A stretch of DNA of 64,000 bases from Halobacterium hubeiense. GTDB taxonomy: Archaea; Halobacteriota; Halobacteria; Halobacteriales; Halobacteriaceae. The translations under genes were made by a program, and so were the position numbers. The stretch lies in assembly GCF_001488575.1 (NCBI RefSeq), contig NZ_LN831302.1, positions 806,001 through 870,000 on the forward strand, read 5' to 3'. Every line of letters begins with the position of its first letter. Positions within the stretch are counted from its first letter, which is position 1. Of the stretch, positions 7,826-28,003 are shown piece by piece. The notes under the pieces are model-generated. The model made no database searches. It was given only the letters and a program-made list of their open reading frames with translations, and was not told the origin of the DNA.

Positions 7826-8343
7826 CAGGCCCTCACGCCGAGTTCACTGCGGAGGTTCTCGATGCGCTCGTCCATCGCCTCCACGAGGTCGGTGTTCTCC
7901 ATCGCTTCCACGGGCGACCCGCACTCGGGGCACTCGAAGCCGAGGTCCATCGCCTCCCCGAACTCGAAGCGAATCGAACACACCTCACAGAGGTAGAACT
8001 CGTTGTTCAGCTCGTACTCGCGGCGCTCGACGAGCGCCTCCAGCAGCCGGTCCATCTCCTCGCGGAGGTTCTCCGGGACGTTGTCGTACTCGAACGTCCA
8101 GAGGTAGGTGAGCCACCCCGAGTCCTCGTCGCGGACGCGGCGGTACGTCGCGAGGTCGTTCTCGTAGAGGATGAACAGCGCCCGGCGCACGTCGTTCAGT
8201 TCGAGCCCGAGCCGCTCGGCGAGCTCCTCGTCGGTCACCTCGCCGTCCGGCGGGGACACCGCCACCGGCATCCCCTTCGGCCCGACCAACTCGTGGAGGT
8301 ACTTCTGAACCACGGGGTCGTCGAGTAGCTCCTCAAAAGCCAT
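7825..8343 (-). CDS. tfe: Transcription initiation factor E subunit alpha
   Basis: 172 residues. Residues 1-90 form the extended winged helix (VTDEELAERLGLELNDVRRALFILYEN), followed by a coiled linker (ENLREEMDRLLEALVERREYE) and a zinc ribbon with CEVC at about 120-123 and CPEC at 137-140. TFE stabilises the open complex with TBP, TFB and RNA polymerase. First gene of a three-gene operon (TFE, DUF2110, DUF5803-like). A TATA-like ACTTAATG on the minus strand (8369-8376) lies 26-33 bases before the ATG, so the transcript is probably leaderless. Confidence 0.95.
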   Translation of the reverse strand: MAFEELLDDPVVQKYLHELVGPKGMPVAVSPPDGEVTDEELAERLGLELNDVRRALFILYENDLATYRRVRDEDSGWLTYLWTFEYDNVPENLREEMDRLLEALVERREYELNNEFYLCEVCSIRFEFGEAMDLGFECPECGSPVEAMENTDLVEAMDERIENLRSELGVRA

Positions 8344-8368
8344 TACGTCAAAACGGGGTCCGCGCCGG

Positions 8369-8376
8369 CATTAAGT
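8369..8376 (-). promoter_or_regulatory. TATA-like box of the tfe operon
   Basis: ACTTAATG read on the minus strand, 26-33 bases upstream of the tfe ATG (8343). This is the canonical haloarchaeal distance for a leaderless transcript. Confidence 0.55.
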
Positions 8377-8408
8377 CTTGTCACTCCCCCGTCTGACGCC
8401 GCGACGCG

Positions 8409-9389
8409 TCAGTCCGCGCTCGCGGCCGCGGCGTCGGCTGTCTGGTCGTCGCGCCACGTGAAGTAGCTGGCGAGCGCGGGGCCGCTGACGTTGTGCCAGA
8501 CGCTGAACAGCGCTGGGATGAGCGCGGCCGCGGGCTCGAACAGCGACGTCGCGAGCGCGACCGCGAGCCCGCTGTTCTGGAGGCCGACCTCGAAGGCGGT
8601 CGTCCGCACGCGGTCCTCGGACATCCCGAACAGCCGGCCGACGCCGTAGCCCGCGCCCAGCCCGATGCCGTTGTGGATGACGACGGCTGCGAGCACGAGC
8701 GCGCCCGCGGTGAGGATGTTGTCGACGTTCGCGCCGACGACGCCCGCGACGATGGCGACGATGGCGGCGACGCTAATCACGGGGAAGACGTCGACGCCGA
8801 CTTCGGCGGCTTTCGGCGAGTAGCGGTCGAGGACGTACCGAATCCCGAAGCCGAGCACGACCGGGATGATGACGATTTGGACGATGCTCGTGAACATCTC
8901 CGCGAACGTCACGTCGATAGACTCCCCGAGGATGAACAGCGTCCACGCGGGCATCACGATTGGCGCCGCGAGCGTCGTCACCGTCGTGATGGCGACCGAC
9001 AGCGCGACGTCGCCGCGGCCGAGGTACGACATCACGTTCGAGGCGGTGCCGCCGGGCGCCGCGCCGACGAGAATGAGGCCGACGCCGATGGCGTCCGGCA
9101 GGTCGAAGAGGAGGTAGAGCGCGTACGCCGCCAGCGGCATCACGAGCCACTGCGTCACCGCGCCGATGCCCACGTCCACGGGGCGCTCGACGAGGCGCTT
9201 GAAGTCCGCGGGCTGGAGGGTCAACCCCATCCCGAGCATGATGATGCCCAGCAGGGGGTTGACGTAGTCGAGGACGGGCACGAACGCGCTCGGATAGACG
9301 AGCGCGAGGCCCGCCGCCGCAATCACCCAGACGACGAAGTACTTGCTCGCGACCCGTGCCACCCGCGAAATCCCGTCACTGACACTCAT
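8409..9389 (-). CDS. Bile acid:sodium symporter (BASS) family transporter
   Basis: 326 residues from ATG 9389 (a GTG two codons upstream is possible). About ten membrane helices. The region with GAAPGGTASNVMSYLGRGDVA, at about residues 110-130, is the conserved crossover motif of the SBF/BASS family, and FEVGLQNSGLAVALA near 265 is the second crossover and Na+-site motif. The family imports organic acids with sodium (bile acids, pyruvate, pantoate and others); the substrate cannot be told. Monocistronic, between the tfe operon and the tRNA methyltransferase gene. Confidence 0.88.
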   Translation of the reverse strand: MSVSDGISRVARVASKYFVVWVIAAAGLALVYPSAFVPVLDYVNPLLGIIMLGMGLTLQPADFKRLVERPVDVGIGAVTQWLVMPLAAYALYLLFDLPDAIGVGLILVGAAPGGTASNVMSYLGRGDVALSVAITTVTTLAAPIVMPAWTLFILGESIDVTFAEMFTSIVQIVIIPVVLGFGIRYVLDRYSPKAAEVGVDVFPVISVAAIVAIVAGVVGANVDNILTAGALVLAAVVIHNGIGLGAGYGVGRLFGMSEDRVRTTAFEVGLQNSGLAVALATSLFEPAAALIPALFSVWHNVSGPALASYFTWRDDQTADAAAASAD

Positions 9390-9455
9390 ACGCACACGGC
9401 GGCGGTCCGGGGACAGAAAGCTTCGCCTACTGGCAGTATTGCGGTCCGCGCACCG

Positions 9456-10058
9456 TCACTCCTCGTCGACGTCCTCAGAAGCGCTCTGCGCTTCTGACGG
9501 GCTACGGGAATCGCTTCGCGATTCTCGAACGTCCACGACGTGCTTCCCCAGTTCTTCGGGAACCACGCGACGCTCTGCGTCCTCGTACTCCTGTTCGAGC
9601 TCGCGGCCGTCGAACAGCCGGTCGAGGAAGACGGCGAGGCCCGCCACCTCGCTGTGTGGCTGGTTCGTCACCGCGAGGTTCCAGTCGGCGTGTTCGTACA
9701 CGTCTCCCGGGACCTTCTCGCCGCCGACGACCACGAGCACCGGCTGGTCCACGTGAGCGTCGCGCACGTCCGCCTCGACGTCCTGCACGCGCTCGCCGTA
9801 CATCGTGAGGTGAACGACGACGCCCTCCCAGCCCTCGATGGTCGCATTCAGCTCCTCCGTGAGTTCGACGTCGAACGGGCCGCCGAACCGGCCCGTGATG
9901 TCCCGGACCGTCTCGGCGGACTGCGTGGCGTTGTCCGGGAACAGCACCCGGTCGGCGCCGAGCGCGCGCGCCGTCAGGCCGACGTGCGTGGTCATCCGGT
10001 CGTCCCGGCCCGGCCGGTGGCCGTACCGGAGCACCGCGACCTCGGGGTATCCCTGCAT
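9456..10058 (-). CDS. tRNA (cytidine(56)-2'-O)-methyltransferase with repeat-derived tail
   Basis: 200 residues from ATG 10058. The protein opens PEVAVLRYGHRPGRDDRMTTHVGLTARALGA and has the knot motifs VVVGGEKVPGDVYEHADWNLAVTNQPHSEVAGLA, the SPOUT-type SAM site of archaeal Trm56. It methylates the ribose of C56 in the T loop of tRNA. The last 30 residues are not part of the enzyme: they are encoded by a double-hairpin repeat (9471-9536) and read DVRESRSDSRS to SASEDVDEE. The tail follows the predicted last helix, where an insert is best tolerated. Confidence 0.9.
   Translation of the reverse strand: MQGYPEVAVLRYGHRPGRDDRMTTHVGLTARALGADRVLFPDNATQSAETVRDITGRFGGPFDVELTEELNATIEGWEGVVVHLTMYGERVQDVEADVRDAHVDQPVLVVVGGEKVPGDVYEHADWNLAVTNQPHSEVAGLAVFLDRLFDGRELEQEYEDAERRVVPEELGKHVVDVRESRSDSRSPSEAQSASEDVDEE
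9471..9536 (-). repeat. Double-hairpin in-frame repeat, copy B (66 bases)
   Basis: Begins GTCCTC. Hairpin one is CAGAAGCGC / tct / GCGCTTCTG (9476-9496). After ACGGGCTA, hairpin two is CGGGAATCGC / ttc / GCGATTCTCG (9505-9527, one G-U pair), ending AACGTCCAC. Length, both ends and coding frame match copy A exactly. The stem sequences differ but remain paired. It adds the acidic-serine tail of the tRNA methyltransferase. Confidence 0.85.
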
Positions 10059-13776: not shown

Positions 13777-14787
13777 TTACTCGTCGCGAGGCTGGCCGCC
13801 GTCCGCGGCCGCCTCGGGCTCGGAGTCGTGTTCGTCGCTGGCGACCTGCTGCTCGTAGCGAGCGCGCAGGACGTTGCCGTACGTCGAGAGCACGACGCCC
13901 AGCAGCAACACGAACATCCCGACGTTGATGCCGATGGTGAGCAGGACGCTCGTCGGTCCGCCGCCGACCGTCAGGCCGGCGGGAACCGGATAACCGGAGT
14001 CGAAGATGCTCCCGACGAGCACGCTCACGATGCCGATGACGACGGCGGCGCCCGCGACGTTCACCGCCCACTTCCACGTGGGGCGCAGCGAGAGCAACTC
14101 GATGCCCGTGCCCTCGTGGTCCTCGTGTTCTTCGTGGGGCATCATCGACTTCGGCACGAACGCCTTCATCTCCACGGGGTAGAACGCGGGGTGGAACCCG
14201 TGCTCGAAGATGTGGAACATGATGCCCATCACCATCACGACCCCGAGCAGGCCGTGGAAGGTGACGAACGCGGTCGCGGCGGCCTTCGTCTGGAAGAACT
14301 GCGCGAGCCCGACCTTGCTCCAGATGAGCAGCCCGGAAATCATCAGGAGGACGAGCTCGACGGTGAAGATCCAGACGACGCCCTTCCCGACGTACGACAG
14401 CAGCGGGACCTCGTCAGAGGAGTAGCCCGCGAACTGGCGCGCGTTCGGGTGGCGTTCGTCGGCGCGCCCGAGGACGAACTGCACGTCCTGGATGAACGCC
14501 TTTGCGTCCGTCGGCGTCGGCAGGACTGCCTTGAAGTTCTTGCGCCGTCCCGGCCCGATGAGCATCAGCGTCACCCAGAAGACGGTGAGCACGATGAGGC
14601 CGAAGCCGGCGATGCGGTGGAGCGCGAGCACGCCGGCGTTGCCGCCCATGAACTCGACCATCCACCAGAGTTCGTCGTTGAACATCACGGAGTAGCCCGT
14701 GAAGAACAACAGGAAGACGTCCAGCGCCAGCAGCGAGTGGAAGTACGTCGTGACGCGCGTGAACTTCCCGTGGTCCATGTTCGTCAC
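13777..14787 (-). CDS. Formate dehydrogenase gamma subunit, membrane cytochrome b
   Basis: 336 residues from GTG 14787 (alternative ATG 14778). Hydrophobic core of about five to six helices with candidate haem ligands in YFHSLLALDV, VLALHRIAG and FHGLLGVVMVMGIMFHIFEHG, as in FdnI/FdoI-type di-haem cytochromes b. It would pass electrons from the beta subunit to the quinone pool. The C-terminal third has two further helices and an acidic tail not typical of FdnI. The start overlaps the upstream stop as GTGA, and it is the last gene of the four-gene operon. Confidence 0.85.
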   Translation of the reverse strand: MTNMDHGKFTRVTTYFHSLLALDVFLLFFTGYSVMFNDELWWMVEFMGGNAGVLALHRIAGFGLIVLTVFWVTLMLIGPGRRKNFKAVLPTPTDAKAFIQDVQFVLGRADERHPNARQFAGYSSDEVPLLSYVGKGVVWIFTVELVLLMISGLLIWSKVGLAQFFQTKAAATAFVTFHGLLGVVMVMGIMFHIFEHGFHPAFYPVEMKAFVPKSMMPHEEHEDHEGTGIELLSLRPTWKWAVNVAGAAVVIGIVSVLVGSIFDSGYPVPAGLTVGGGPTSVLLTIGINVGMFVLLLGVVLSTYGNVLRARYEQQVASDEHDSEPEAAADGGQPRDE

Positions 14788-15176
14788 GCGCTCTCACCTC
14801 CGCTGTCGGCGTCGCGGCCGCCGTCCGTGGCGACCTCCGCGGGCTCGTCGTGGTCGCGCATCCGCGCGCCGAGGCGCCGGAACGCGCCCCAGTGCACGAA
14901 CACGAGCGCGAGGATGAACACGCCCATCAGGACGTCGACCGCGTGGATGACGACGATGAGCGCGTCAAGCAGCGGGTCGGTGTTGCCGGCGACGAAGTCC
15001 GCGCCGACGCCGCCGCCCTCGACGGTGGGGTTGACGCGGTACAGCGTCTCGAAGCTCGCGTCGAAGGAGCCGTTGACGTACCAGACGGAGGCGACTGCGA
15101 CGACGATACCGACGACGGCGCTGACCGCGATGGCGAGCGCCTCCGACATGCCGCGTGCGTCGTCGCGGCGAGCCAT
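14784..15176 (-). CDS. Small membrane subunit of the formate dehydrogenase operon
   Basis: 130 residues from ATG 15176 (alternative ATG 15149). Two membrane helices (about 10-33 and 68-95) flank an extracytoplasmic loop with VNPTVEGGGVGADFVAGN; the C-terminus is charged. Its ATG overlaps the beta-subunit stop (TGATG) and its stop overlaps the gamma start (GTGA), so it is translated with both. Classical FdnGHI has no such subunit. It may be an assembly or anchoring factor specific to haloarchaeal enzymes. Confidence 0.7.
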   Translation of the reverse strand: MARRDDARGMSEALAIAVSAVVGIVVAVASVWYVNGSFDASFETLYRVNPTVEGGGVGADFVAGNTDPLLDALIVVIHAVDVLMGVFILALVFVHWGAFRRLGARMRDHDEPAEVATDGGRDADSGGESA

Positions 15177-15850
15177 CAGTTGAACACCTCCGCGTCCTCC
15201 CCGAAGATGACCTCCATCGCCTCGTCGTTGAAGAACGGGTCGCGGTCCCGCTTGTCGAGCTCGTCGGCGATCTGACCGGGCTGGCCGACGAGGATGGCGT
15301 CGGTCGCGCACTCCTCGGCGCACGCCGGGCCCTTCCCGACGTTCTGGCGCTCCTCGCACATCGTACACTTGTCCATGATGCCGCCGGTGCCGACGACCGC
15401 GTTCCCGCCGTCGTCCTCGTCGGGGAACTGCGGGGCGCCGAACGGACACGCCGACAGGCAGTACTGGCAGCCGACGCAGAGGTCCTCGCTGACCTGCACG
15501 AAGTCGTCGTCGTTCTTCTGGAGCGCGTCGGTCGGACAGACCGACACGCAGGGCGCGTTCTCGCAGTGGTAACACTGCATCGGGATGGCGGTCTCGCCGG
15601 GGAACGCGCCGTCGTCGAGGGCCTTCGAGCTGTTGGCGTTGTAGCCTTCGTCGGCCTGCTCGCCCTCGAACATCGTGGAGATGCTGATTCGCTGTTCCTC
15701 CGGGCCGATGTCCCACGTGCGCTTGCACGCGACGACACAGCCACCGCAGTCGATACAGGCCTCGACGTCGGGGAAGATGCGGGCACCTTCGCCGGTGCTG
15801 ATGACCCCCTGGCTCAAGACCTCACGTTGTGATTGTTGGTTCGATGACAT
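15176..15850 (-). CDS. Formate dehydrogenase beta subunit, four-cluster ferredoxin
   Basis: 224 residues. Cysteine groups CIDCGGCVVAC, CYHCENAPCVSVCP, CVGCQYCLSACPFG and CTMCEERQNVGKGPACAEEC provide ligands for four 4Fe-4S clusters, the DMSO reductase-family electron-transfer subunit layout. It takes electrons from the alpha subunit and hands them to the cytochrome b. It has no signal peptide, as usual for subunits carried through the Tat system by their partner. Three bases separate it from alpha. Confidence 0.92.
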   Translation of the reverse strand: MSSNQQSQREVLSQGVISTGEGARIFPDVEACIDCGGCVVACKRTWDIGPEEQRISISTMFEGEQADEGYNANSSKALDDGAFPGETAIPMQCYHCENAPCVSVCPTDALQKNDDDFVQVSEDLCVGCQYCLSACPFGAPQFPDEDDGGNAVVGTGGIMDKCTMCEERQNVGKGPACAEECATDAILVGQPGQIADELDKRDRDPFFNDEAMEVIFGEDAEVFN

Positions 15851-15853
15851 TGG

Positions 15854-18800
15854 TTACTGAACGGGCTTGTTCTCCCGGACGTCGAAGTCTTTCTGCCGAC
15901 CGATGTTGGCCTCGTCCTGGGGGAACGAGAACGTCGACAGGTCGACGTCCATGTTGAGTTCGTCGACCACGTCCTGGGTCGCTTTCCGGACGCGAACCAT
16001 CGCGGCCTTCGTCTCCTGCATCTGCGTTTCGACGTCGTACCCCGGCGACGTGATGGAGTTCACGCTGTCACCGATGGCGAACGGCGCCATCCCGTCCGGG
16101 TACTCTTCGAGGAGGTTCTCCCCCTGGAAGATGCCGCCCCAGTGGTAGGGGAGGAACGTCTCCTCGGCGTTCGGTCGATTCGTCACGCGGGCTTTCACCA
16201 GCACCGAGCCGCGGTTCGTCGTCTCGACGACCACGAGGTCGCCGCCGTCCACGCCGAGTTCCTCGGCCATGTCCGGGTGAATCTCCGCGTACATGTGCGG
16301 CTGGAGGTCCGCGGTGAAGATGTTCGACCGCGTCTCCGAGCCGCCGCCCTGGTGTTCGACCTGTCGGCCGGACGTCAGGATGGTGTCGATGGCGCCGTCG
16401 GAGTCGGCGATGCGGCTCATCGCCCGCGACTGGACCTCCGAGTTGTTCTGGTCCAGCCGGTAGACGTTGTGCTGCTGGCCGTTCGCCGGCCACTCCTCGG
16501 TCAGCCCCGGTTCGGGGCTCTCGATGGGTTCGCGGTGGACCGGCGTCGGGTCGAGGAACTCCCACGCGACAGCGCGAGCGCGACCGCGCCCCGTCGGCGG
16601 GTCGGGCTGTGCGTTGTCGAACTGCTCCCAGAAGTCGAGGTCGAAGTCGAACTCCTCGCGCTCGTTGAGCGCCACCGCCGCGTCGTACGGCGAGTGGTCC
16701 TCGCTGAGCGCGTACTCGAACGGGAGCGACGGTGCCGAGGGGTTGTTGAGGTCCTCCGGGAGCGCCGTCGCGAAGCCCGGATACTCGGGGACGCCCTCGA
16801 TTTCGCCGTCGTGCCAGTCAGGGGAGAACGACGTCCGGAGCATGTTCAGGGCTTCGTCGCCGCCCTGGTCGTAGGTCTCCTGGAGCGGGTACTCCTTGTC
16901 CGTGTCCATCGACGCCCAGTCCTCGGGCGACGGCGCCTCCGTCCCCCAGCGGGAACGGAAGTCCTGGCCGCCCTCGCGGGGGTCGACTTCGTCGGTCCAC
17001 AGAATCGGCGTGCCGGGGTGGCCGTCACCCCAGCACGGCCACGGGAGACTCCAGTATTCGCCGCTTACCGGGAGGTCCGTGTCGTGCGCCTTCGTGTCCT
17101 CCTCGGAGAACGCGTAGTCGTACTCGCGGTGTTGCTGGAGCCGCTCGGGGCTCTGCTGGTAGCCGATGGTGCGCACGCCGAGGTTGATCTCGCGCAGCGC
17201 CTCCTCGTACGTGGACTTCCCGTTGAACATCTCGGGGCCCGAACCCCAGTCGAAGTGCTCGCCGAAGCCGAGGCGGTCGGCCAGCTCCTGCATGATCTGC
17301 ATGTCCGGCTTCGCCTCGTGGCTCGGCGGCCGCACGGGCTCGCTCCACTGCACCGCGCGGTGGGAGTTCGTGACCGAGCGGTAGTGCTCGTACTGGCTGG
17401 CCGCCGGCAGCAGGATGACGCCGTCGTCGCGGTCCGGCAGCACGGACGCGAGCGACGGGAACAGGTCCACGACCACGAGCAGGTCGAGGGCCTCCATCGC
17501 CTGCCGCATCCGCGGCATCTCCGAGATGGAGTTCGAGGAGTGCCCCCAGAAGAACGCCGCCTTCACGGGGTTCTCCTGGTAGATGGGCGACTCCAGGAGG
17601 CGGTCCTCCTGCGGGAGCGCCGCTTCGAACCAGCGGGCGACGGTGAGCCCGTTCTGGTACATCAGCGAGCGGTCCTCCGCGGAGGCGCCCGGGTCGCCGC
17701 CCTGCTGTTCGTACAGCTCGGGCGGCATCGTCTCGAACTTCTCGTAGAGGTCGTCGAAGCTGACGTCGCCGGAGGTGGTCGGCGTCTTGTTCCAGACGTC
17801 CGCCCAGTACTCCCACGAGCCGCGGCTGGAGACGCCGTAGTAGCCGGGGAGGATGTGGCTGGCGACGCCGAGGTCCGTCGCACCCTGCACGTTCGCGTGG
17901 CCGCGCATCACCTGCAGGCCGCCGCCCGAGTGGGCGGCGCTCCCGGAGGCGAGGCTGGTCAGCGCGTACGAGCGGATGTTCTGCGTGCCGTTGTTGTGCT
18001 GGGTGCCGCCCATCGCCCACTCGATCTGGACGTTGGGCTTGTTCTCGATGATGAGGTCGCCGAGCTCGCGGACGCGGTCCGCGCTGATCCACGTGATCTC
18101 CTCGACGGTCTCGGGGTCGTAGTCGTCGAGTTCGCCCTCGACGTCCGGCCACCCCTGCACGCGCTCCTCGAGCATCTCGTCGTCGAGTTCGCCCTGCTCG
18201 CGGAGGTACCGCATCAGCCCCATCATCAGCGCGACGTCCGTCCCGGGACGCAGCCGGTAGAAGTCGTCCGCGTGAGCGGACGTCTTCGTGTACCGGGGGT
18301 CCACGGAGACGACCGTGCCGCCGCGGGCCTGCCCCTCGAGGATGTGCTGCATCGCGATGGGGTGGGCTTCCGCGGGGTTCTGCCCGATGATGATGTTGAG
18401 GTCGAAGTTCCGGTAGTCGTTGACCGTGTTCGTCATCGCCCCGTACCCCCACGTGTTCGCGAGACCGGTGACGGTCGTGGAGTGGCAGATACGGGCCTGG
18501 TGGTCGATGTTGTTCGTGCCCATGAAGGAGGCGAGCTTGCGCGACGCGTACGCCTCCTCGTTGCAGTGGTGGGCGCTCCCGAGGAACATCAGGGAGTCGC
18601 GGCCGTACTCGTCCCAGATTCGCTCGAGCTCCTCGGTAATGTGGGAGTACGCCTCGTCCCACGTGATTTTCTTCCACTCGCCGTTTTCTTTCCGCATCGG
18701 GTGTTTCAGACGTCGCTCGGAGTGTTCGCTGCCGTAGATGGCAGCCCCCTTCGAGCAGAGCGACCCGTTGTTAATCGGGTTCTCCTCCCAGGGCTCCTGC

Positions 18801-19036
18801 CCGACGAAAGCATCCCCTTCTCGTTCTCCGCGGAACCCGCAGCCGACCGCGCAGAAGTTACAGATGGTCTTGGTGAGCGTCGAGTCGTCGCCGGAGACGT
18901 CGGCGCCACCGCTTTCGCCGTCCTGAGCGAGCGTCTGGCCGGTTATCCCGCCGCCGAGGGCGAGGCCGCCTGCGAGGGCACTCGCCTTCATGAACGACCG
19001 ACGGTCTAGGTCCAGAGAGACCGGTTGTGTACTCAT
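15854..19036 (-). CDS. Formate dehydrogenase alpha subunit, Mo/W-bis-MGD, Tat-exported
   Basis: 1060 residues. A Tat signal (DRRSFMKASALAGG) is followed by a 4Fe-4S site CNFCAVGCGFRGEREG with a later Cys in LCSKGAAIYG. The active-site region HQARICHSTTVTGLANTWG has Cys184 (codon TGC, 18485-18487) where some enzymes have selenocysteine, followed by the conserved His. The C-terminal molybdopterin dinucleotide-binding domain is about 870-1040. It oxidises formate to CO2 on the outer face of the membrane. First gene of the operon; a TATA-like ATTAATC (19064-19070) lies about 28 bases before the ATG. The TorD gene nearby suggests chaperoned export. Confidence 0.93.
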   Translation of the reverse strand: MSTQPVSLDLDRRSFMKASALAGGLALGGGITGQTLAQDGESGGADVSGDDSTLTKTICNFCAVGCGFRGEREGDAFVGQEPWEENPINNGSLCSKGAAIYGSEHSERRLKHPMRKENGEWKKITWDEAYSHITEELERIWDEYGRDSLMFLGSAHHCNEEAYASRKLASFMGTNNIDHQARICHSTTVTGLANTWGYGAMTNTVNDYRNFDLNIIIGQNPAEAHPIAMQHILEGQARGGTVVSVDPRYTKTSAHADDFYRLRPGTDVALMMGLMRYLREQGELDDEMLEERVQGWPDVEGELDDYDPETVEEITWISADRVRELGDLIIENKPNVQIEWAMGGTQHNNGTQNIRSYALTSLASGSAAHSGGGLQVMRGHANVQGATDLGVASHILPGYYGVSSRGSWEYWADVWNKTPTTSGDVSFDDLYEKFETMPPELYEQQGGDPGASAEDRSLMYQNGLTVARWFEAALPQEDRLLESPIYQENPVKAAFFWGHSSNSISEMPRMRQAMEALDLLVVVDLFPSLASVLPDRDDGVILLPAASQYEHYRSVTNSHRAVQWSEPVRPPSHEAKPDMQIMQELADRLGFGEHFDWGSGPEMFNGKSTYEEALREINLGVRTIGYQQSPERLQQHREYDYAFSEEDTKAHDTDLPVSGEYWSLPWPCWGDGHPGTPILWTDEVDPREGGQDFRSRWGTEAPSPEDWASMDTDKEYPLQETYDQGGDEALNMLRTSFSPDWHDGEIEGVPEYPGFATALPEDLNNPSAPSLPFEYALSEDHSPYDAAVALNEREEFDFDLDFWEQFDNAQPDPPTGRGRARAVAWEFLDPTPVHREPIESPEPGLTEEWPANGQQHNVYRLDQNNSEVQSRAMSRIADSDGAIDTILTSGRQVEHQGGGSETRSNIFTADLQPHMYAEIHPDMAEELGVDGGDLVVVETTNRGSVLVKARVTNRPNAEETFLPYHWGGIFQGENLLEEYPDGMAPFAIGDSVNSITSPGYDVETQMQETKAAMVRVRKATQDVVDELNMDVDLSTFSFPQDEANIGRQKDFDVRENKPVQ

Positions 19037-19207: not shown

Positions 19208-21304
19208 ATGAACGTCGGGGCGTTCGTCTGTGGCTGCGGTGGTTCCGTCGACCTCGACCTCGAAGGCGTCCGCGAGGGCGTCCGCGACGTCGACGTCGTC
19301 GCCAGCGGTGCGAACCTCTGTACGGAGGGCTTACCGAAGGTGCGACACGTCGTCGAGGAGTACGACCTCGACCACCTGATAGTCACAGCCGAGAGCGACA
19401 ACTGCAAGCAACGATACCGAACCGTGCTCGACGACGCCGGGCTCCATCCCGAGGCAATCTCGTTCGTCAATCACCGCGAGCGCGGCGCGTGGGTCCACGA
19501 CGAGACCGACGCAACCGACCTCGTCGCGCGGAAGATAAACGCCGCGTACGCGGGCCTCCGCGAGGAGGCGCCGCCGCGGTCCGTCTCCCGGGAGGCCGGC
19601 GACGACGTCGTGGTCGTCGGCGACCCCGAGGCCGCCGAAGCGCTGTCGGACTCCGCGGACGTCACGCTGCTCGCGGACGGCCGGGACTTCGCGGACGCCG
19701 ACTACGACCTCCGCGACGTCACGCTCGCCCGCGGGCGCGTCACGGACGTCGACGGCGTCTACGGCGAGTTCGAGATTCAGGTGCAGGCCGGCGTCACCGA
19801 GGACTGCATCGACTGCATGGAGTGCGTCAAGCAGGGGCCCGACGAGTACGTCACGAGCAAGCCCGTGGACGTGCTGCCGGGCGCGCCGGACGGCGACTGG
19901 GTGGACTGCTGTCCGACCGACGCCATCCACCCCGAGGAGCGCACCATCGAGGCCGACCAAGTGGTGTACCCGGACGCATCCCGGGCGACCCGCGGCGGCC
20001 GCATGGGCTTCTACACGGGGCCGGTGGACGCCGCGACGGTCGCGGCCGTCCAGGACCTCATCGGCGGCATCGAGAAGCCGCAGTTCCTCGACGTGGAGAT
20101 GGACGTCTGCGCGGCGGGCGGGTCCAGCCAGCAGGGCTGTACCGCGTGTTCGGACGCCTGCCCGCACGGCGCCGTCTCCCGCCCCACCATCGACAGCGTG
20201 GAGTTCGACGAAGTGGCGTGTGAGGGTTGTGGCGCGTGCACGAGCGCGTGCCCGACCGGCGCGGTGCGCGCCCGCGAACCCTCGAACGAGCGCATCGCCC
20301 GCGAGGTCGAGTCGATGCTCGTCGAGACCGACGACTCCGGGCTGCTCTCCTCGTCCGAGGAGGGCATCGAGACCGGCGTCGTGGCGTTCGTCTGCGACGA
20401 GCGCGCCGCCCGCGCGCTCGACGACTTCGGCCGCCGCGCCCGCCAGCGGGACGGCATCGAGTACCCGCCCCTGCTCCCCGTCGAGGTGCCGTGCGCGGAC
20501 ACCGTCGGCGAAGCACACGTCCTGCACGCGCTCGCCGCGGGCGCGGACGGCGTCGCCATCGTCGGCTGCGGCGGCGACTGCCTGCACTCCGGCCCGGACC
20601 CGAAGGCCGAACTCGTCACGCGCATGAATCAGGCGACCGAGGACCTCGGGCTCGGCAAGCGCACCGCGTTCTTCGCGCCCGAGCCCGGCGAGCCGGAGGC
20701 GTTCGTCGAGGACGTCAGCCGGTTCGTCGAACTCGGTCTCGACCCGTCGCCGGTGCCCGCCGGCCACGAGGCCGACGGCGTCGCGGACCCGACGACCGCC
20801 AACCCCGAGTTCAACACCCACGACTGGGCGCTGGAGAGCGTGCGCGCCATCGTCCCGCACACCGACCCGCGGGACGTCGTCCGCGGGCTGGAGTCGTTCG
20901 GCCGCGTCGAGGTCAACGAGGACTGCACGTTCACGCCGACGTGTTCGAACCTCTGCCCGACGGACGCGCTCCGCCGCGAGGAGGCCGGACTGGAGTTCGA
21001 CCACGAGCGCTGCGTGAACTGCGGGCTCTGCGAGGAGGGCTGCATGGAGGACGCCATCCGCGTGGACGGCGGCCTCGAACTCGGCCTGCTCCCCGAGAAC
21101 AACGACGGGGACGCCTGGACGACCGTCGCGGACGGCGAGATGCGGGAGTGCCGCCGCTGCGGCAAGCCGTTCACGAGCGAGGCGTCCGCACAGAAGATCA
21201 GCGACGAAGTCGGGGACGTCGTCGCGGGCATCGCGCCCGACGCCGACGGCGACGTCTTCGAGTACTGCAGCGACTGCCGCGCGAAACTCGTCTACGACCG
21301 ATAA
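19208..21304 (+). CDS. HdrA/MvhD-like multi-cluster iron-sulfur protein
   Basis: 698 residues. Residues 1-115 resemble the HdrA N-terminal domain (GAFVCGCGGSVDLDLEGV, CKQRYRTVLDDAGL, ERGAWVHD). A shortened part at about 125-180 lacks the FAD-binding GxGxxG of HdrA. Ferredoxin-like Cys groups follow at CIDCMECVKQ and CACSDACPHG-type sites (about 315-350). An MvhD/FlpD-type domain with VAFVCDERAARAL and VGCGGDCLHSG covers about 395-510. Another ferredoxin site (CVNCGLCEEGC) and a zinc-ribbon-like end (CRRCGKPF, CSDCRAKL) complete it. Cytoplasmic, no signal. Two bases separate it from the torD-like gene. An electron-transfer or assembly role with formate dehydrogenase is inference from position. 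Confidence 0.85.
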   Translation: MNVGAFVCGCGGSVDLDLEGVREGVRDVDVVASGANLCTEGLPKVRHVVEEYDLDHLIVTAESDNCKQRYRTVLDDAGLHPEAISFVNHRERGAWVHDETDATDLVARKINAAYAGLREEAPPRSVSREAGDDVVVVGDPEAAEALSDSADVTLLADGRDFADADYDLRDVTLARGRVTDVDGVYGEFEIQVQAGVTEDCIDCMECVKQGPDEYVTSKPVDVLPGAPDGDWVDCCPTDAIHPEERTIEADQVVYPDASRATRGGRMGFYTGPVDAATVAAVQDLIGGIEKPQFLDVEMDVCAAGGSSQQGCTACSDACPHGAVSRPTIDSVEFDEVACEGCGACTSACPTGAVRAREPSNERIAREVESMLVETDDSGLLSSSEEGIETGVVAFVCDERAARALDDFGRRARQRDGIEYPPLLPVEVPCADTVGEAHVLHALAAGADGVAIVGCGGDCLHSGPDPKAELVTRMNQATEDLGLGKRTAFFAPEPGEPEAFVEDVSRFVELGLDPSPVPAGHEADGVADPTTANPEFNTHDWALESVRAIVPHTDPRDVVRGLESFGRVEVNEDCTFTPTCSNLCPTDALRREEAGLEFDHERCVNCGLCEEGCMEDAIRVDGGLELGLLPENNDGDAWTTVADGEMRECRRCGKPFTSEASAQKISDEVGDVVAGIAPDADGDVFEYCSDCRAKLVYDR

Positions 21305-21306
21305 CC

Positions 21307-21930
21307 ATGAGCTTGGACCAGCAGGCACTCTACGACGCGCGACTCGAACTCGTCGACTACCTCGTCGACGCACTCTACGACACCCCCGAGGAGGCGTTCG
21401 TCGAACAGCTCCTCGACGGCGGCCTCGACACGCCCGCCGACTCCATCAACGACGACCTCGATGCGGGCTTCGAGTACCTCCACGAGTTCGTCGAAGCCAA
21501 CGAGGGCCGCGACCCCGCCGAGGTGACCGACGAGCTCGCAAAGGAGTTCACGCGCGTGTTCGTCGGGCCGCGGCCGCCCGTCCAGCCCCACGAGACGTAC
21601 TACCGCGAGGACACCGACTTCCTCTCCTCGGGACTCGCGGAAGTGGACGCCAGCTACGGCGCCGCGGGCTGGAAGGTCCCAGAGGACGTCAGCGAGGAGG
21701 CCGACTACGTCGGCGTCGAACTGCTGTTCGTCCGGAACCTCCTGCGCCGCCAGCAGGCCGGCGAGGAGGAAGCCGTCGGCTTCGAGCGCGTGTTCCTCGA
21801 CGAGCACTTCTCGACGTGGCTGGACGCGTACCTAGACGACGTCGTCGAGAACACGGACGAGCCGTTCTACCTCGCCGCGGTCCACGTCCTGCGTGGGTTC
21901 GTCGAGTTCGAACGCGACCTCGTCGCGTAA
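21307..21930 (+). CDS. TorD/DmsD-type chaperone for a molybdoenzyme
   Basis: 207 residues, all-helical. The EFTRVFVGPRPPVQPHETYYRE motif with a following DFLSSGLAEVDASYGAAGW is the TorD family signature (E-x-x-R-x-F, P-x-x-P-x-E). These proteins bind the Tat signal of their client and help cofactor loading. The likely client is the formate dehydrogenase alpha subunit encoded divergently; no other Tat molybdoenzyme is in the window. Probably cotranscribed with the HdrA/MvhD-like gene. Confidence 0.87.
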   Translation: MSLDQQALYDARLELVDYLVDALYDTPEEAFVEQLLDGGLDTPADSINDDLDAGFEYLHEFVEANEGRDPAEVTDELAKEFTRVFVGPRPPVQPHETYYREDTDFLSSGLAEVDASYGAAGWKVPEDVSEEADYVGVELLFVRNLLRRQQAGEEEAVGFERVFLDEHFSTWLDAYLDDVVENTDEPFYLAAVHVLRGFVEFERDLVA

Positions 21931-22108: not shown

Positions 22109-22450
22109 CTACTCGACCGGCGGCGCGTTCGGCGGACGCTCCTCCTGGTCGTAGTTGTCGAGGAACACCGTCGCGAACAGGTCGGTGTGCATCGACAGCA
22201 CGGCCGCGGGCTCGGTGCCCGCTCGTTCGGCCTGCTGGTCGAGGAACGCCGCGAGTTCCTCGGTCGGCTCGTACGTAATCGTCCGCTCGTCGACGTCGAA
22301 CTCGACGTCCTGCTCGCCGGAGACGAGGTGTTCGACCTCCAGCAGCGCCTGCTCGACTTTCGTCTCGAGGGCGTCCTCGCGGTCGGTCATGCGTCGCTCG
22401 GCCCACTCGTCGGCGGCCGCGACGAGGCGGTCGCTGGCTTCGAACTGCAT
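22109..22450 (-). CDS. Conserved helical haloarchaeal protein
   Basis: 113 residues from ATG 22450, whose start overlaps the stop of the zinc-ribbon gene (TGATG). A long amphipathic helix ADEWAERRMTDREDALETKVEQALLEVEHLV is followed by FDVDERTITYEPTEELAAFLDQQAERAG and a short acidic-proline end. It may be a dimerising or nucleic-acid associated protein; no recognised domain. Third gene of the run 22850-22109 with two small partner genes. Confidence 0.65.
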   Translation of the reverse strand: MQFEASDRLVAAADEWAERRMTDREDALETKVEQALLEVEHLVSGEQDVEFDVDERTITYEPTEELAAFLDQQAERAGTEPAAVLSMHTDLFATVFLDNYDQEERPPNAPPVE

Positions 22451-22590
22451 CAGAAGCTCAACCCCTCGCCCTCGAAGGCGACCTGCCACGTCGTCACTTC
22501 CTCGCAGACCGGGCACTCGCGGGTCGTCGCGTTCGTCTCACAGCCCGGCATGCGGGTCATGTTCTCGCACTGCGCGCACTCGTACATCAT
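22450..22590 (-). CDS. 46-residue zinc-ribbon protein
   Basis: ATG 22590 (a second ATG follows directly) to TGA 22450. Contains CAQC near the start, a GCE site and CPVC, giving a two-knuckle zinc ribbon ending VAFEGEGLSF. Its start overlaps the stop of the upstream membrane protein gene (ATGA), and its stop overlaps the next start, so the three are tightly coupled. Role unknown; short zinc ribbons of this kind are very common in haloarchaea. Confidence 0.7.
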   Translation of the reverse strand: MMYECAQCENMTRMPGCETNATTRECPVCEEVTTWQVAFEGEGLSF

Positions 22591-22910: not shown

Positions 22911-23603
22911 TCAGTCGTCGAGTTCCCAGCCGGCGCTCTCGGCGGCGTCCGCGAGGTCCACGAACTCCCACCCGGCGTCCTCGGCAATCCACTCCTCGCC
23001 CTCGGTGCCGACGACGACCATCCGCTCGGAGTAGAACATCGAGTGCTCGCCGATGGCCGCGAGCCGCTCGGCGGGGCCGTCCCCGGAGCCGTTGAAGAAG
23101 TCGATGTCCAGCTGGTGCTCGCGCAGGAAGGAGTTGATGGCGTGCGCCGGCACGTCGCCGACCAGCCCAATCCAGTCGGACCACTCGTTGGTCTCCGCGA
23201 GCGCGATGCGCGGGTCGTCGAGGCGCTGGATGGCCTCGTACGTGTACGCGGTCGCCATGTCGTCGACGCCGCCGCCGTGCGGGCCGCTCGCTTCGGGCGC
23301 TTCCGCGCGGTCCTCCGCTGGCCCGGCGCCGCCGCCAGCGCCACCGTGGTCTTTCGGGATGCCCGCGGGGCTGTTCGAGGACTCGTAGGGGACGTGGGGG
23401 ATGCGGTCGCCCTGCGAGTCGCCGGCCGGCTCCTCGGACTCCGTGGCCGACCCGCCGCTGCTGGCGCTCTCGCCGGCGGCCGTCTCGCCGACGTCGCCGT
23501 CGATGTCGGCAGAGGCGTCGTCGCGCCACAGCCAGTCGCCGTCGTTGCCCTCGTCTTCCTCGGTCTCCACCTCGACGTCGTCTAGGTCGATTCGTTCTGT
23601 CAC
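22911..23603 (-). CDS. Acidic haloarchaeal protein (DUF7124-like)
   Basis: 230 residues. A disordered acidic Ser/Gly-rich first half (1-115) precedes a folded C-terminal domain: MATAYTYEAIQRLDDPRIALAE, WSDWIGLVGDVPAHAINSFLREHQLDIDFFNG, then SMFYSERMVVVGTEGEEWIAEDAGWEF. The same layout is seen in a haloarchaeal family I recall as DUF7124. The start overlaps the AOR-like gene's stop (4 bases, ATGA), so they are cotranscribed. The pairing with an AOR homologue is a clue to function, but no activity is known. Confidence 0.7.
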   Translation of the reverse strand: MTERIDLDDVEVETEEDEGNDGDWLWRDDASADIDGDVGETAAGESASSGGSATESEEPAGDSQGDRIPHVPYESSNSPAGIPKDHGGAGGGAGPAEDRAEAPEASGPHGGGVDDMATAYTYEAIQRLDDPRIALAETNEWSDWIGLVGDVPAHAINSFLREHQLDIDFFNGSGDGPAERLAAIGEHSMFYSERMVVVGTEGEEWIAEDAGWEFVDLADAAESAGWELDD

Positions 23604-25330
23604 TGTGTAGCCTCCGTCAACTCCAGTCGTTCGAGCGTCGATTCCGTCGGCACGCCCTCACTGTCCCAGCCGCGGGCGTCGTAGTACGCCTCAAGCATCG
23701 CGTCGAACCGCTCCCGGTCGATGGCCGCGCCTTCCGCGGGGCCGTCCGGTAGCGGCACGGTCATCGCCTCGGGGAGCGCGTCGTCGTTGCGGTCGTGGCC
23801 CTCGCGGACGTTGAACAGCCGCGTGAGGTTCCACGCGCGCTCGCCGAGGTCCGCGAGCGACTCCGCGGTGGCGTCCACGCCGACTGCACGCAGCCAGCGC
23901 GCGCCCTGCTCGGGTGCGGCTTCGCCCGCGAAGTCGTCGGCGACCAGACACCAGCGCGCGCTGCGGGCGTTCTGCTCGCTGACGACCGCGCGCACGCGGT
24001 CCGCGTCGCTCCACGACTCCGCGGCGACGGCGGCCTCCTCGATGGGGCGAGCGCGCCGGTGGCACGCCCCGCGGTCGCTGGTCGCGTACGCCAGCGCCAT
24101 CGCGGGCGCCGCCCGCGGGTCGTAGGTCGGCAGTTCCATCGCCTTCACCGCGGGAATCATCTGGTCGAAGCCGAGGCGGTCGGCGGCCGCGACGACGCCG
24201 TCCGCGAGCGCGTCCCCGAGGTCGGTCTCGCGGGTGGCGACCTCGCGGATGAGCCGGCGCGCGCCCTCGGGGTCGCCGAAGTCGACGTCCCTGTCGAGGG
24301 CGCCGCGCTCGCTCGCGCGGGCGGCGAACGCGACCGCGCTCCCGGCGCTGATGACGTCCACGCCGAGGCGGTCGCAGAGCCCGCCGAGTTCGGCGACCGC
24401 GTCGAAGTCGCTGATGCCGAGGCCGGCGCCCAGCGTGATGGACGCCGCGCCCCGCGGCACCGTCTCGCCGTCGCCGTCGGGCACGCGGAAGCCGCCCGGG
24501 ACGGCCTCGCCCGGCCGCTCGCGCCCGACGCTGGCTTCGCGGACTGCTTCGATGCCGACGCCGTCGGCGCCGTCGAACGTCCCGGACTGCCATCCCCGCG
24601 TGGGGAGCGCGCCCACTTCGTCCGCGAAGTCCACGGATTCGAGGGTCTCGCTGGCCGCCTGCCAGCGCCCGACCTCCGCGTCCGCGAACTCCTCGTCGGC
24701 GGCGTCCAGTTCCGGCGGCGTCTCCGGCGCGTCGCCGCGCGCGACGACGGCCTTCAGGCCTTTCGCGCCCATCACGGTGCCCGCGCCGCCGCGGCCGGCG
24801 TGGTGGTCGCCGCCGTCCGTCGCGACCGTCGCGAACCGGACGCCGTGCTCGCCAGCGGGGCCGACGCACGCGACCGCCGCGTCCGGATACTGGGCGTCGG
24901 TCTCGGCGGCGTCCATGCCCGCGAGTTCGGGGGCGTCCTCGATGCGCGCGGTGCCGTCCTCGACGACGAGGACGCCGGGTTCGTCGCGCTCGCCCTCGAC
25001 GAGGACGAGCAGGCAGTCGTCGAGGCTGCCCGCGAGCCGCGCGGCGAAGTCGCCGCCGGCGTACGAGTCCAGGAACGCGTCCGTGAGCGGGGACTTCGTC
25101 ACGACCGCGAACCGTGGTTCGCCGGGCGCGCGCCCGGTCAGCGGGCCGACCGCGAACGCGAGTAGATTCTCGGGGCCGAGCGGGTCCACGCCCGCCTCGG
25201 TGTCCGCGAGCAGGTACCGGGCGGCGAGCGCCTTCCCGCCGACGTAGCGGCGTCGCCACTCGGGCGGAATCTCCTCGCGCGACACGGTCCCCTCGCCGAG
25301 CCGCACGCGCAACACGTGGTCCCCGACCAT
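23600..25330 (-). CDS. Aldehyde:ferredoxin oxidoreductase family protein lacking cluster cysteines
   Basis: 576 residues. The AOR N-terminal domain (RRYVGGKALAARYLL, LLAFAVGPLTGRAPG, RFAVVTKSPL), the tungstopterin motif AGRGGAGTVMGAKGLKAVV (178-196) and the second pterin-binding region (ATSDRGACHRRARP; SARWCLV) are present. The usual CxxCxxxC that binds the 4Fe-4S cluster is expected near residues 270-285, but the sequence there is SVGRERPGEAVPGGFRV. The only cysteines are at about 106, 155, 319, 423 and 461. So the pterin site looks kept and the cluster site lost. Activity as an AOR is doubtful. Followed by a DUF7124-like gene; MobA is encoded divergently. Confidence 0.85.
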   Translation of the reverse strand: MVGDHVLRVRLGEGTVSREEIPPEWRRRYVGGKALAARYLLADTEAGVDPLGPENLLAFAVGPLTGRAPGEPRFAVVTKSPLTDAFLDSYAGGDFAARLAGSLDDCLLVLVEGERDEPGVLVVEDGTARIEDAPELAGMDAAETDAQYPDAAVACVGPAGEHGVRFATVATDGGDHHAGRGGAGTVMGAKGLKAVVARGDAPETPPELDAADEEFADAEVGRWQAASETLESVDFADEVGALPTRGWQSGTFDGADGVGIEAVREASVGRERPGEAVPGGFRVPDGDGETVPRGAASITLGAGLGISDFDAVAELGGLCDRLGVDVISAGSAVAFAARASERGALDRDVDFGDPEGARRLIREVATRETDLGDALADGVVAAADRLGFDQMIPAVKAMELPTYDPRAAPAMALAYATSDRGACHRRARPIEEAAVAAESWSDADRVRAVVSEQNARSARWCLVADDFAGEAAPEQGARWLRAVGVDATAESLADLGERAWNLTRLFNVREGHDRNDDALPEAMTVPLPDGPAEGAAIDRERFDAMLEAYYDARGWDSEGVPTESTLERLELTEATQ

Positions 25331-25408: not shown

Positions 25409-26026
25409 GTGCGCTCAGCAGTCGTGCTCGCGGGCGGCCGCTCGACTCGGTACGGCGACGGCGACAAGGCGCTCGCCGACCTCGCCGGCTCGCCGATGCT
25501 GCGCCGGGTCGCCGACCGCCTCGCCGACGCCACCGACGAGCTAGTCGTGAACTGCCGGGACGACCAGCGCGACGCCCACCGGGACGCCCTCGACGGCTAC
25601 CCGAACCCCATCAGGGTCGCTGAAGACCCCGAACCCGACGAGGGCCCGATGGCGGGCATCGCTGCCGGCCTCCGAGAGGCCAGCGGCGAGTACGCGCTCG
25701 TCGTCGCCTGCGATATGCCGTTCGTGGACCCAGCGGTCGTCGACCTCCTCTTCGACCGAGCCGCCGGCCGCGACGCCGCCGTCCCCGAGATGGACGACGG
25801 CTGGTACCAGACGACGCAGGCGGTCTACCGCGCGGACGCGATGGCCGCGGCCTGCGCGGACGCCCTCGACCGCGGCGACCGCAAGATTCTCGCGCCGCTG
25901 GAGTCGCTGGACTGGGTCGCCGTCCCCGAAGCAGACGTGGCGGCGGCTGGCGACCTCGAATCCTTCGAGAACCTCAACACGCGCGAGGCCGTGGCGGAAG
26001 CGGCCGAGCGGTTCGCCCCGCAGTAG
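25409..26026 (+). CDS. mobA: Molybdenum cofactor guanylyltransferase
   Basis: 205 residues from GTG 25409; the longer ORF upstream is arginine-rich and not conserved. N-terminal nucleotide-binding LAGGRSTRYGDGDKALADL, then EDPEPDEGPMAGIAAGL and VVACDMPFVDPAVV, the classic MobA motifs. It transfers GMP to Mo/W-pterin to form the dinucleotide cofactor used by the formate dehydrogenase encoded nearby. Divergent from the AOR-like gene with 78 bases between. Confidence 0.9.
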   Translation: MRSAVVLAGGRSTRYGDGDKALADLAGSPMLRRVADRLADATDELVVNCRDDQRDAHRDALDGYPNPIRVAEDPEPDEGPMAGIAAGLREASGEYALVVACDMPFVDPAVVDLLFDRAAGRDAAVPEMDDGWYQTTQAVYRADAMAAACADALDRGDRKILAPLESLDWVAVPEADVAAAGDLESFENLNTREAVAEAAERFAPQ

Positions 26027-27283: not shown

Positions 27284-28003
27284 TTAGACGACGGTCTTCA
27301 CGGGGTCGTCGGCCTTCAGCGACGTGACGACGACGCGGGGGACGTCCGCGCGCTCGTGGACGCCCTCCGCGATTTCGGTGGCGGTCTGGACGAGCGCGGC
27401 GTCGTCGGCCATGTTCACGAGCGGAATCACGGTCGCGCCCTCTGGTACGTCTCGCATTCCGCCCTCGGGGTGGGCGAGCACGCGTGCGACGTCCTCGGGG
27501 CGAATCTCGTCGCCGACCGAGAGGTCCGTGATGGCGGCGACGCGCTCGGGCCGGTGGGCGACGGCCTCCGAGAGCGGTTCGCCGACCGCGCGCACGCTCG
27601 CAATCGGCACCACGACGTCCGCGCAGTCCGGAATCTGTGGCTCGTGTTCGCCCGGCGCCTTCAGCCGGCGGGTGCGCGCACCGTCGGCTTTCACGAGGAC
27701 GGCGCTCGGGGCGGCGTCGGCGACGCCCGCGATTCGCTCGCGCTCGTAGCCGCGGTAGCGGTCCTCGCGCTCCTGCTCGGGCACCACGCCCAGCGGCCAC
27801 TCGGCGTTCTCGCGGACGGCCGCGGACGGGTCGTCCGTGACGACGACCCGGGCGACGTGCTCGTCGAAAATCGGGATGCGGACCGTCGCCGTCACGACGG
27901 CGCGCTCGATTCGGTCGGCGAGCGCGTACAAAAGCGACTTCTTCCCGCCCGCACCGACCGCGCAGACGACTCCCTCGGCGTCGACGGCGTCTTCGAGCTC
28001 CAT
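27284..28003 (-). CDS. yqeC: YqeC-like molybdenum hydroxylase accessory protein
   Basis: 239 residues. P-loop-like AVGAGGKKSLLYALA (15-29), ATVRIPIFDEHVARVVV, and the LVKADGARTRRLKAPGEHEPQIPDCADVVVPIASV signature of YqeC (putative selenium-dependent hydroxylase accessory protein). Known members occur with molybdenum hydroxylases and MobA-like proteins. No xanthine-dehydrogenase-type enzyme is in the window, so the client could be elsewhere or be one of the Mo/W enzymes here. Preceded immediately by the PadR regulator gene (adjacent, no gap), so probably cotranscribed. Confidence 0.85.
   Translation of the reverse strand: MELEDAVDAEGVVCAVGAGGKKSLLYALADRIERAVVTATVRIPIFDEHVARVVVTDDPSAAVRENAEWPLGVVPEQEREDRYRGYERERIAGVADAAPSAVLVKADGARTRRLKAPGEHEPQIPDCADVVVPIASVRAVGEPLSEAVAHRPERVAAITDLSVGDEIRPEDVARVLAHPEGGMRDVPEGATVIPLVNMADDAALVQTATEIAEGVHERADVPRVVVTSLKADDPVKTVV

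What the first reader, a model, noticed from the sequence alone, without database searches (positions are those of the whole stretch)
23600..25330. AOR-family enzyme with pterin motifs but no iron-sulfur cysteines
The AOR fold residues and pterin motif (AGRGGAGTVMGAKGLKAVV) are intact, while the place of the CxxCxxxC cluster ligands reads SVGRERPGEAVPGG with none. The five remaining cysteines are elsewhere. Without the cluster, electrons cannot leave to ferredoxin in the usual way. The gene is coupled by ATGA to a DUF7124-like protein, and MobA is encoded next door. Either the enzyme has a new role or its electron path is different.
Basis: partly seen in the sequence, partly recalled or inferred. 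Interest (0 to 1): 0.62.

Follow-up and report, generated by a model that had tools for sequence, protein, structure and literature searches.

The report
Iron-sulfur-free AOR relative tied to formate dehydrogenase
In salt-loving archaea, a whole ancient branch of a tungsten-enzyme family has lost its iron-sulfur cluster site and its catalytic acid while keeping much of the pocket for the metal cofactor; it travels with formate dehydrogenase and cofactor-assembly genes in archaea that lack the usual formate dehydrogenase assembly factor, so it may be a retired enzyme reused to hold or hand over the metal cofactor.

Summary
The 576-aa protein (23600-25330, minus) has the full AOR fold but lacks all four [4Fe-4S] ligands of Pyrococcus AOR (C288, C291, C295, C494), and also the active-site E311/Y312/E313 (now R/G/A,S,G) and D489 (now invariant W). 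It is no sequencing error or decaying gene: the substitutions are shared by every full-length orthologue examined, form one clade (support 100/100), and dN/dS is about 0.11. The nearest sister clade and the same genome's two other AORs keep the ligands. Outside haloarchaea the closest relatives inspected keep them too.

The clade co-occurs with YqeC in 197 of 198 genomes and with formate dehydrogenase (FDH) in 29 of 29 sampled, and often sits beside MobA, YqeC and one of four FDH types; four cluster-bearing sister loci have none of these neighbours. FdhD, the usual FDH cofactor chaperone/sulfurtransferase, is absent from 80/80 haloarchaeal genomes. YqeC's model resembles SIMIBI NTPases, a class that includes cofactor-delivery factors MeaB and HypB.

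Best explanation (inference, about 0.42): a non-redox bis-pterin cofactor holder serving FDH maturation with MobA and YqeC. Main rival: a C1 enzyme working beside FDH. No paper found describes this clade.

The parts
23600..25330 (-). AOR/WOR-family protein without iron-sulfur ligands (576 aa)
   Evidence: Pfam AFOR_N + AFOR_C; AF2 model pLDDT 89, Z 48.8 to 1aor, rmsd 1.9 over 566 residues; all four Cys ligands absent
24491..24532 (-). Residues 267-280 SVGRERPGEAVPGG, in the place of the CxxCxxxC cluster loop; length-variable and acidic in orthologues
24446..24454 (-). Residues 293-295 R-G-A, replacing E311-Y312-E313 of PfAOR; R and G are invariant in the clade
23936..23953 (-). Residues 460-465 (W...D), replacing the second pterin motif and 4th cluster ligand (D489...C494); W and D are invariant in the clade
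22911..23603 (-). DUF7124 protein, GTGA-overlapping downstream gene, no cysteines; beside the clusterless AOR in 14 of 30 loci
   Evidence: PF23439 1.3e-35
25409..26026 (+). MobA (molybdenum cofactor guanylyltransferase), divergent from the AOR gene
   Evidence: TIGR02665 2e-31 (below its curated cut-off), NTP_transf_3; neighbour in 17 of 30 loci
27284..28003 (-). YqeC; P-loop-like GAGGKKS; AF2 model resembles SIMIBI NTPases (FtsY/SRP54 Z 12.8; MeaB 10.3; HypB 10.2)
   Evidence: PF19842, TIGR03172; co-occurrence 197/198
15854..19036 (-). Formate dehydrogenase alpha-like molybdopterin oxidoreductase (1060 aa)
   Evidence: TIGR01591 4.3e-136, best match though below the equivalog cut-off; FDH-like gene within about 9 kb in 21 of 30 loci
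15176..15850 (-). 4Fe-4S ferredoxin-type FDH beta-like subunit
   Evidence: Fer4_11 2.7e-16
13777..14787 (-). Cytochrome b561-type FDH gamma-like membrane subunit
   Evidence: PF01292 6e-21; TIGR01583 6.9e-06
19208..21304 (+). HdrA/FlpD-like polyferredoxin (698 aa); present in 12 of 30 loci
   Evidence: FlpD, Fer4, HdrA2 hits
21307..21930 (+). NarJ/TorD-type molybdoenzyme chaperone
   Evidence: PF02613 2.4e-22; 13 of 30 loci
22109..22516 (-). Unknown 135-aa protein conserved beside the AOR in 11 of 30 loci
   Evidence: no Pfam hit

Best explanation
A non-redox descendant of the AOR/tungsten oxidoreductase family, kept by haloarchaea as a helper of formate dehydrogenase. It most likely still holds a bis-metallopterin (Mo or W) in the old AOR pocket, but it no longer oxidises aldehydes or passes electrons to ferredoxin. 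Proposed working: it receives or stores the bis-molybdopterin form of the cofactor (the nucleotide-free form that AOR pockets bind), and with MobA (adds GMP) and the SIMIBI-like NTPase YqeC (gates the hand-over) it supplies the cofactor to formate dehydrogenase. Haloarchaea appear to mature that enzyme without FdhD. Shown: the conserved loss of ligands and catalytic residues, the predicted fold, the purifying selection, the linkage and co-occurrence with MobA/YqeC/FDH, and the absence of FdhD matches. Inferred: cofactor binding, the carrier role, the order of steps, and YqeC's role.
For: All four Fe-S ligands are gone in every full-length member examined, with E311/Y312/E313 and D489 replaced; R293, G294, W460 and D465 are invariant in 42 sequences, so the site was re-shaped rather than eroded. 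One clade, support 100/100, with a cluster-bearing sister clade. dN/dS 0.09-0.15. AOR fold intact in the model, Z 48.8 to 1aor. N-terminal pocket retained: R73, G92-G93, G179-R180-G181-G182, T229, D325 and H424 are invariant or nearly so. Co-occurrence with YqeC 197/198 and with FDH 29/29; genus-collapsed p = 1.8e-7 and 1.9e-5. Neighbours in 30 loci: FDH-like 21, YqeC 19, MobA 17; 0 in 4 cluster-bearing sister loci. Four FDH architectures share it, so the common factor is FDH itself. FdhD 0/80, while control genomes ring. YqeC's model resembles SIMIBI NTPases such as MeaB and HypB. Of 29 sampled genomes with neither FDH nor the clade, 28 lack YqeC too, although several had other candidates in the molybdoenzyme first look.
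Against: No direct evidence that it binds any pterin or metal. The second pterin motif is lost (D489 to W, C494 to D), which could mean weaker or no binding. 22 of 51 sampled genomes with FDH lack the clade and 7 of these lack YqeC too, so it is not strictly required for FDH. MobA serves other bis-MGD enzymes as well, and linkage can reflect shared regulation rather than a shared reaction. No AOR-like factor is part of the tungsten FDH maturation pathway described in Methylorubrum (PMC13197769).
Confidence: 0.42

Rival explanations
1. A working C1 enzyme beside FDH: it still carries Mo/W-bis-pterin and converts a C1 compound (for example formaldehyde or a formyl compound) to formate, or hydrates/dehydrates without net redox, with FDH consuming the product. 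If redox, electrons leave directly to a docking protein or second substrate, as in cluster-free bis-MGD reductases (own knowledge).
For: Conserved pocket residues T229, Y403 (Y/F) and H424, with new invariant arginines (R293, R425) that could bind an anionic substrate. Some loci carry formate-producing or C1 genes: formamidase in Halomicrococcus, formate-THF ligase in Halobellus, an FAD-dependent oxidoreductase plus glyA in Haloterrigena and Natrinema.
Against: E313, the acid assigned to proton/hydride chemistry in AOR mechanisms (PMC12096430), and E311 and Y312 are lost. No shared aldehyde source or electron partner recurs; only FDH, MobA and YqeC do. Linkage to YqeC and MobA is not explained by substrate supply.
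Confidence: 0.22
2. A catalytically dead pseudoenzyme that acts as a structural or regulatory partner (for example of FDH or DUF7124) and binds no cofactor.
For: Loss of cluster ligands, catalytic acids and the second pterin motif; length-variable acidic loop where the cluster was.
Against: 109 invariant positions across the clade, many of them in the old pocket (GRGG, T229, D325, CHRR, R406), are hard to explain if the pocket is empty. DUF7124 is beside it in only 14 of 30 loci.
Confidence: 0.18
3. A redox enzyme with a new electron route: electrons move between the pterin metal and an external partner (for example the FDH Fe-S chain or the HdrA/FlpD-like polyferredoxin) without an internal cluster.
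For: The HdrA/FlpD-like polyferredoxin is close by in 12 of 30 loci and in the window.
Against: 18 of 30 loci have no such partner within about 8 kb; no new Cys motif; catalytic acids lost.
Confidence: 0.12

Closest known systems
P. furiosus aldehyde:ferredoxin oxidoreductase (1aor) and FOR (1b25), AOR/WOR family
   Same: Full-length AFOR_N/AFOR_C homology, same predicted fold (Z about 49), N-terminal pterin segment, DxxGxD, T243, Y427 and H448 equivalents
   Different: No C288/C291/C295/C494, no E311/Y312/E313, D489 replaced by W; linked to FDH/MobA/YqeC
Haloferax volcanii WOR83 (9q1t); own-genome orthologue L001p
   Same: Same family, same organism group
   Different: WOR83 and its own-genome orthologue keep CHSCPVAC, the distal Cys and EYE; only about a third identical to the window protein
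Cluster-bearing sister clade (L017, L056-L059, L061)
   Same: 42-49% identity, haloarchaeal hosts, aromatic residue at the D489 position
   Different: Keep SCxxCPVAC, the distal Cys and PEYE; none of the FDH/MobA/YqeC neighbours in four loci
YdhV / BamB (class II benzoyl-CoA reductase) branch
   Same: AOR-family members that lack the usual second-shell residues (PMC12096430)
   Different: They carry a Cys ligand to the metal and are described as redox proteins (PMC12096430); the window protein lacks the cluster ligands altogether
FdhD/FdsC (FDH cofactor chaperone-sulfurtransferase)
   Same: Proposed analogous service to FDH: holds and hands over the pterin cofactor
   Different: No sequence relation (only AFOR domains found in the window protein); no PF02634 match in 80 haloarchaeal genomes
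SDMH selenium trait (SelD-YqeB-YqeC; PMC2276186)
   Same: Shares YqeC
   Different: SelD and YqeB absent from the window genome and 22 of 24 others tested; in G058 and G107 they sit with a second YqeC on another contig

Membership tests
AOR/WOR family | AFOR_N and AFOR_C domains over the full length | tested here: met
   2e-59 and 9e-90, residues 5-199 and 213-571
AOR/WOR family | AOR three-domain fold | tested here: met
   AF2 pLDDT 89.1; Z 48.8, rmsd 1.9, 566 residues to 1aor
AOR/WOR family | [4Fe-4S] ligands CxxCxxxC plus distal Cys | tested here: not met
   0 of 4 in the window and 0 of 4 in the full-length clade members examined
AOR/WOR family (aldehyde-oxidising members) | Second-shell T243, E313, Y427, H448 | tested here: not met
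   T, Y (or F) and H kept, E313 replaced by A/S/G in all members
AOR/WOR family | W/Mo-bis-pterin with bridging Mg2+ | not testable with these tools
   N-terminal pocket residues kept, second pterin motif lost; needs the purified protein
FdhD family | PF02634 homology | tested here: not met
   Only AFOR domains found in the window protein
Selenium-dependent molybdenum hydroxylase trait | SelD and YqeB in the genome | tested here: not met
   No match in G000; matches in only 2 of 25 genomes tested
SIMIBI NTPases (YqeC partner) | P-loop and fold similarity | tested here: inconclusive
   GAGGK invariant in 18 sequences; Z 12.8 to FtsY, 10.3 MeaB, 10.2 HypB at 12-16% identity

The most novel reading that the evidence does not exclude
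Haloarchaea mature formate dehydrogenase without FdhD by a dedicated module in which an AOR enzyme, stripped of cluster and catalytic acid, became a bis-pterin cofactor carrier (possibly also a sulfur donor through the invariant C319/C423), working with a SIMIBI-like NTPase (YqeC) and MobA: an oxidoreductase recruited as an assembly factor for another pterin enzyme family.
Probability: 0.3. Interest if true: 0.82.

Novelty: new variant of a known kind. Interest (0 to 1): 0.64.

Why it matters
Recent papers treat the AOR/WOR family as cofactor- and cluster-conserved (PMC12096430; PMC13328260 reports 'very little variation' in cofactor- and cluster-coordinating residues). A haloarchaeal clade, in about half of sampled genomes, breaks that rule and is routinely annotated as 'aldehyde ferredoxin oxidoreductase C-terminal domain-containing protein', so predictions of aldehyde oxidation from it are doubtful. 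Its tie to FDH, together with the absence of FdhD matches in every haloarchaeal genome tested, raises a testable question: how do haloarchaea load and activate formate dehydrogenase? It also links YqeC, whose role is uncertain even where deleted (PMC11448449), to FDH rather than selenium in these organisms.

Tried and rejected
Sequencing error or frameshift: rejected, an independent assembly and many orthologues agree. Pseudogene decay: rejected by dN/dS about 0.11 and 109 invariant positions. Alternative in-register Cys motif or new metal site: none seen; only C319 and C423 are invariant, and both have a Cys counterpart in PfAOR. Multiple independent losses: the tree needs one change. Selenium cofactor trait as explanation of YqeC: rejected, no SelD/YqeB in the window genome. 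Occurrence outside haloarchaea: in a 393-genome phylum sample the four non-haloarchaeal relatives inspected all keep the Cys ligands; one (L135) already has W at position 489 with C494 kept, suggesting stepwise change. YqeC had no sequence match among solved structures. Literature searches for a clusterless AOR returned nothing. The supplementary clade tables of PMC13328260 could not be read, so I cannot say which of its 92 clades, if any, contains this one.

Full report
Observation. The window ORF 23600-25330 (-) encodes a 576-aa protein with full-length AFOR_N and AFOR_C matches. Against P. furiosus AOR it lacks C288, C291 and C295 (the CxxCxxxC loop reads SVGRERPGEAVPGG, residues 267-280) and the distal ligand C494 (now D465). 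T243, Y427, H448, R76, D338 and D343 have counterparts. The overlap with the downstream DUF7124 gene is GTGA rather than ATGA.

Real and selected. Orthologues were collected from haloarchaeal genomes. In 42 clusterless sequences used for conservation, R293, G294, W460 and D465 are invariant, E313 is always A, S or G, and 109 positions are invariant; two cysteines (C319, C423) are invariant. The former cluster region varies in length and in some members carries long acidic insertions. dN/dS between close Halobacterium orthologues is 0.09-0.15. A maximum-likelihood tree places all 45 clusterless rows in one clade (100/100), sister to a haloarchaeal clade that keeps all ligands. The same genome has two other AORs with cysteines: L001p, orthologue of the solved Hfx. 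volcanii WOR83, and L003p. In a phylum-wide sample the four non-haloarchaeal relatives inspected keep the ligands.

Structure. The AF2 model (mean pLDDT 89.1, pTM 0.92) matches solved AORs at Z 48-49 (1aor: 1.9 A over 566 residues). The fold is therefore retained. Cofactor binding was not tested.

Context. In 30 clusterless loci of up to 18.5 kb, FDH-like genes occur in 21, YqeC in 19, MobA in 17, DUF7124 in 14, a NarJ/TorD-like chaperone in 13 and the HdrA/FlpD-like protein in 12, in varying order and orientation; four loci of the cluster-bearing sister clade have none of them. The FDH genes are of four architectures. The window itself holds an FDH alpha, beta and gamma set (13777-19036), the chaperone (21307-21930), MobA (25409-26026) and YqeC (27284-28003).

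Co-occurrence. Over 392 haloarchaeal genomes the clade is in about 198, YqeC in 254, both in 197; the one exception is an 85%-complete draft. In an 80-genome sample, clade and FDH: 29 both, 0 clade without FDH, 22 FDH without clade, 29 neither; YqeC and FDH: 44 of 45 (one genome, G025, counts as FDH-bearing through). Collapsed to genus-state rows, p = 1.9e-5 (clade x FDH), 1.8e-7 (clade x YqeC), 7e-9 (YqeC x FDH). In the window's genus, 6 sampled genomes with the clade have FDH and YqeC; of 6 without it, none has YqeC and one has FDH. Caveats: these tests do not use a species tree; the clade count rests on E-value and identity, with cysteine loss read directly in roughly 60 sequences; three of the 198 were not inspected, two of the six genomes counted as cluster-bearing only were assigned by their genus, and split matches hide some members (for example G132).

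FdhD and YqeC. FdhD, which loads and sulfurates the FDH cofactor in bacteria (PMC6239281, PMC13197769), has no match in 80 of 80 haloarchaeal genomes, 51 of them with FDH, while eight of the control genomes ring; H. volcanii rings for FDH but not for FdhD. YqeC is known as a selenium-hydroxylase accessory marker (PMC2276186) of uncertain role (PMC11448449), but SelD and YqeB are absent from the window genome and most others tested. Its AF2 model (pLDDT 95) resembles SIMIBI NTPases, including MeaB and HypB, at Z 10-13. This is a fold resemblance only.

Mechanism. The loss of cluster and catalytic acid speaks against ordinary AOR chemistry; the retained N-terminal pterin pocket speaks for a remaining ligand; the company it keeps speaks for formate dehydrogenase cofactor supply. 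AOR pockets hold nucleotide-free bis-MPT (PMC12096430), the substrate side of MobA, so I propose a carrier or storage role before or around MobA, with YqeC as a possible NTP-driven gate. All steps of this mechanism are inferred. Rivals are a C1 enzyme beside FDH, a cofactor-free pseudoenzyme, and a redox enzyme with an external electron partner.

Known or new. No paper found describes a clusterless AOR clade. The current classification paper defines its simplest class by one [4Fe-4S] cluster and states little variation at cluster residues (PMC13328260); its supplementary clade lists were not readable here. The protein is a family member by homology and fold but fails the cluster and E313 criteria, so I file it as a new variant, not as an AOR enzyme.

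Noticed in passing
80 haloarchaeal genomes: FdhD (PF02634) is absent from all, including 51 genomes with formate dehydrogenase; how haloarchaeal FDH is sulfurated is open.
   Followed up: partly
window 27284-28003 and 392 genomes: YqeC co-occurs with FDH in haloarchaea (44 of 45 sampled), mostly without SelD or YqeB where tested, so its curated name 'selenium cofactor biosynthesis protein' is probably misleading here.
   Followed up: partly
L135 (G574), AOR at 7756-9594: A cluster-bearing non-haloarchaeal relative already has W in place of D489 (LWSLTSCDF), a possible intermediate state.
   Followed up: no
window 19208-21304: A 698-aa HdrA/FlpD-like polyferredoxin divergent from the FDH genes; could be an FDH electron partner.
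   Followed up: no
window 22911-23603: DUF7124 protein has a long acidic low-complexity N-terminus with a conserved proline-glycine motif (VP...PxGIP) and a conserved C-terminal domain; no function known.
   Followed up: no
L003 814-2457 (own genome C1 about 2.377 Mb): A short 547-aa AOR with CSDCAFAC and a very long branch (2.9 changes per column), beside a gene resembling an SRP-type GTPase; a divergent third AOR.
   Followed up: no
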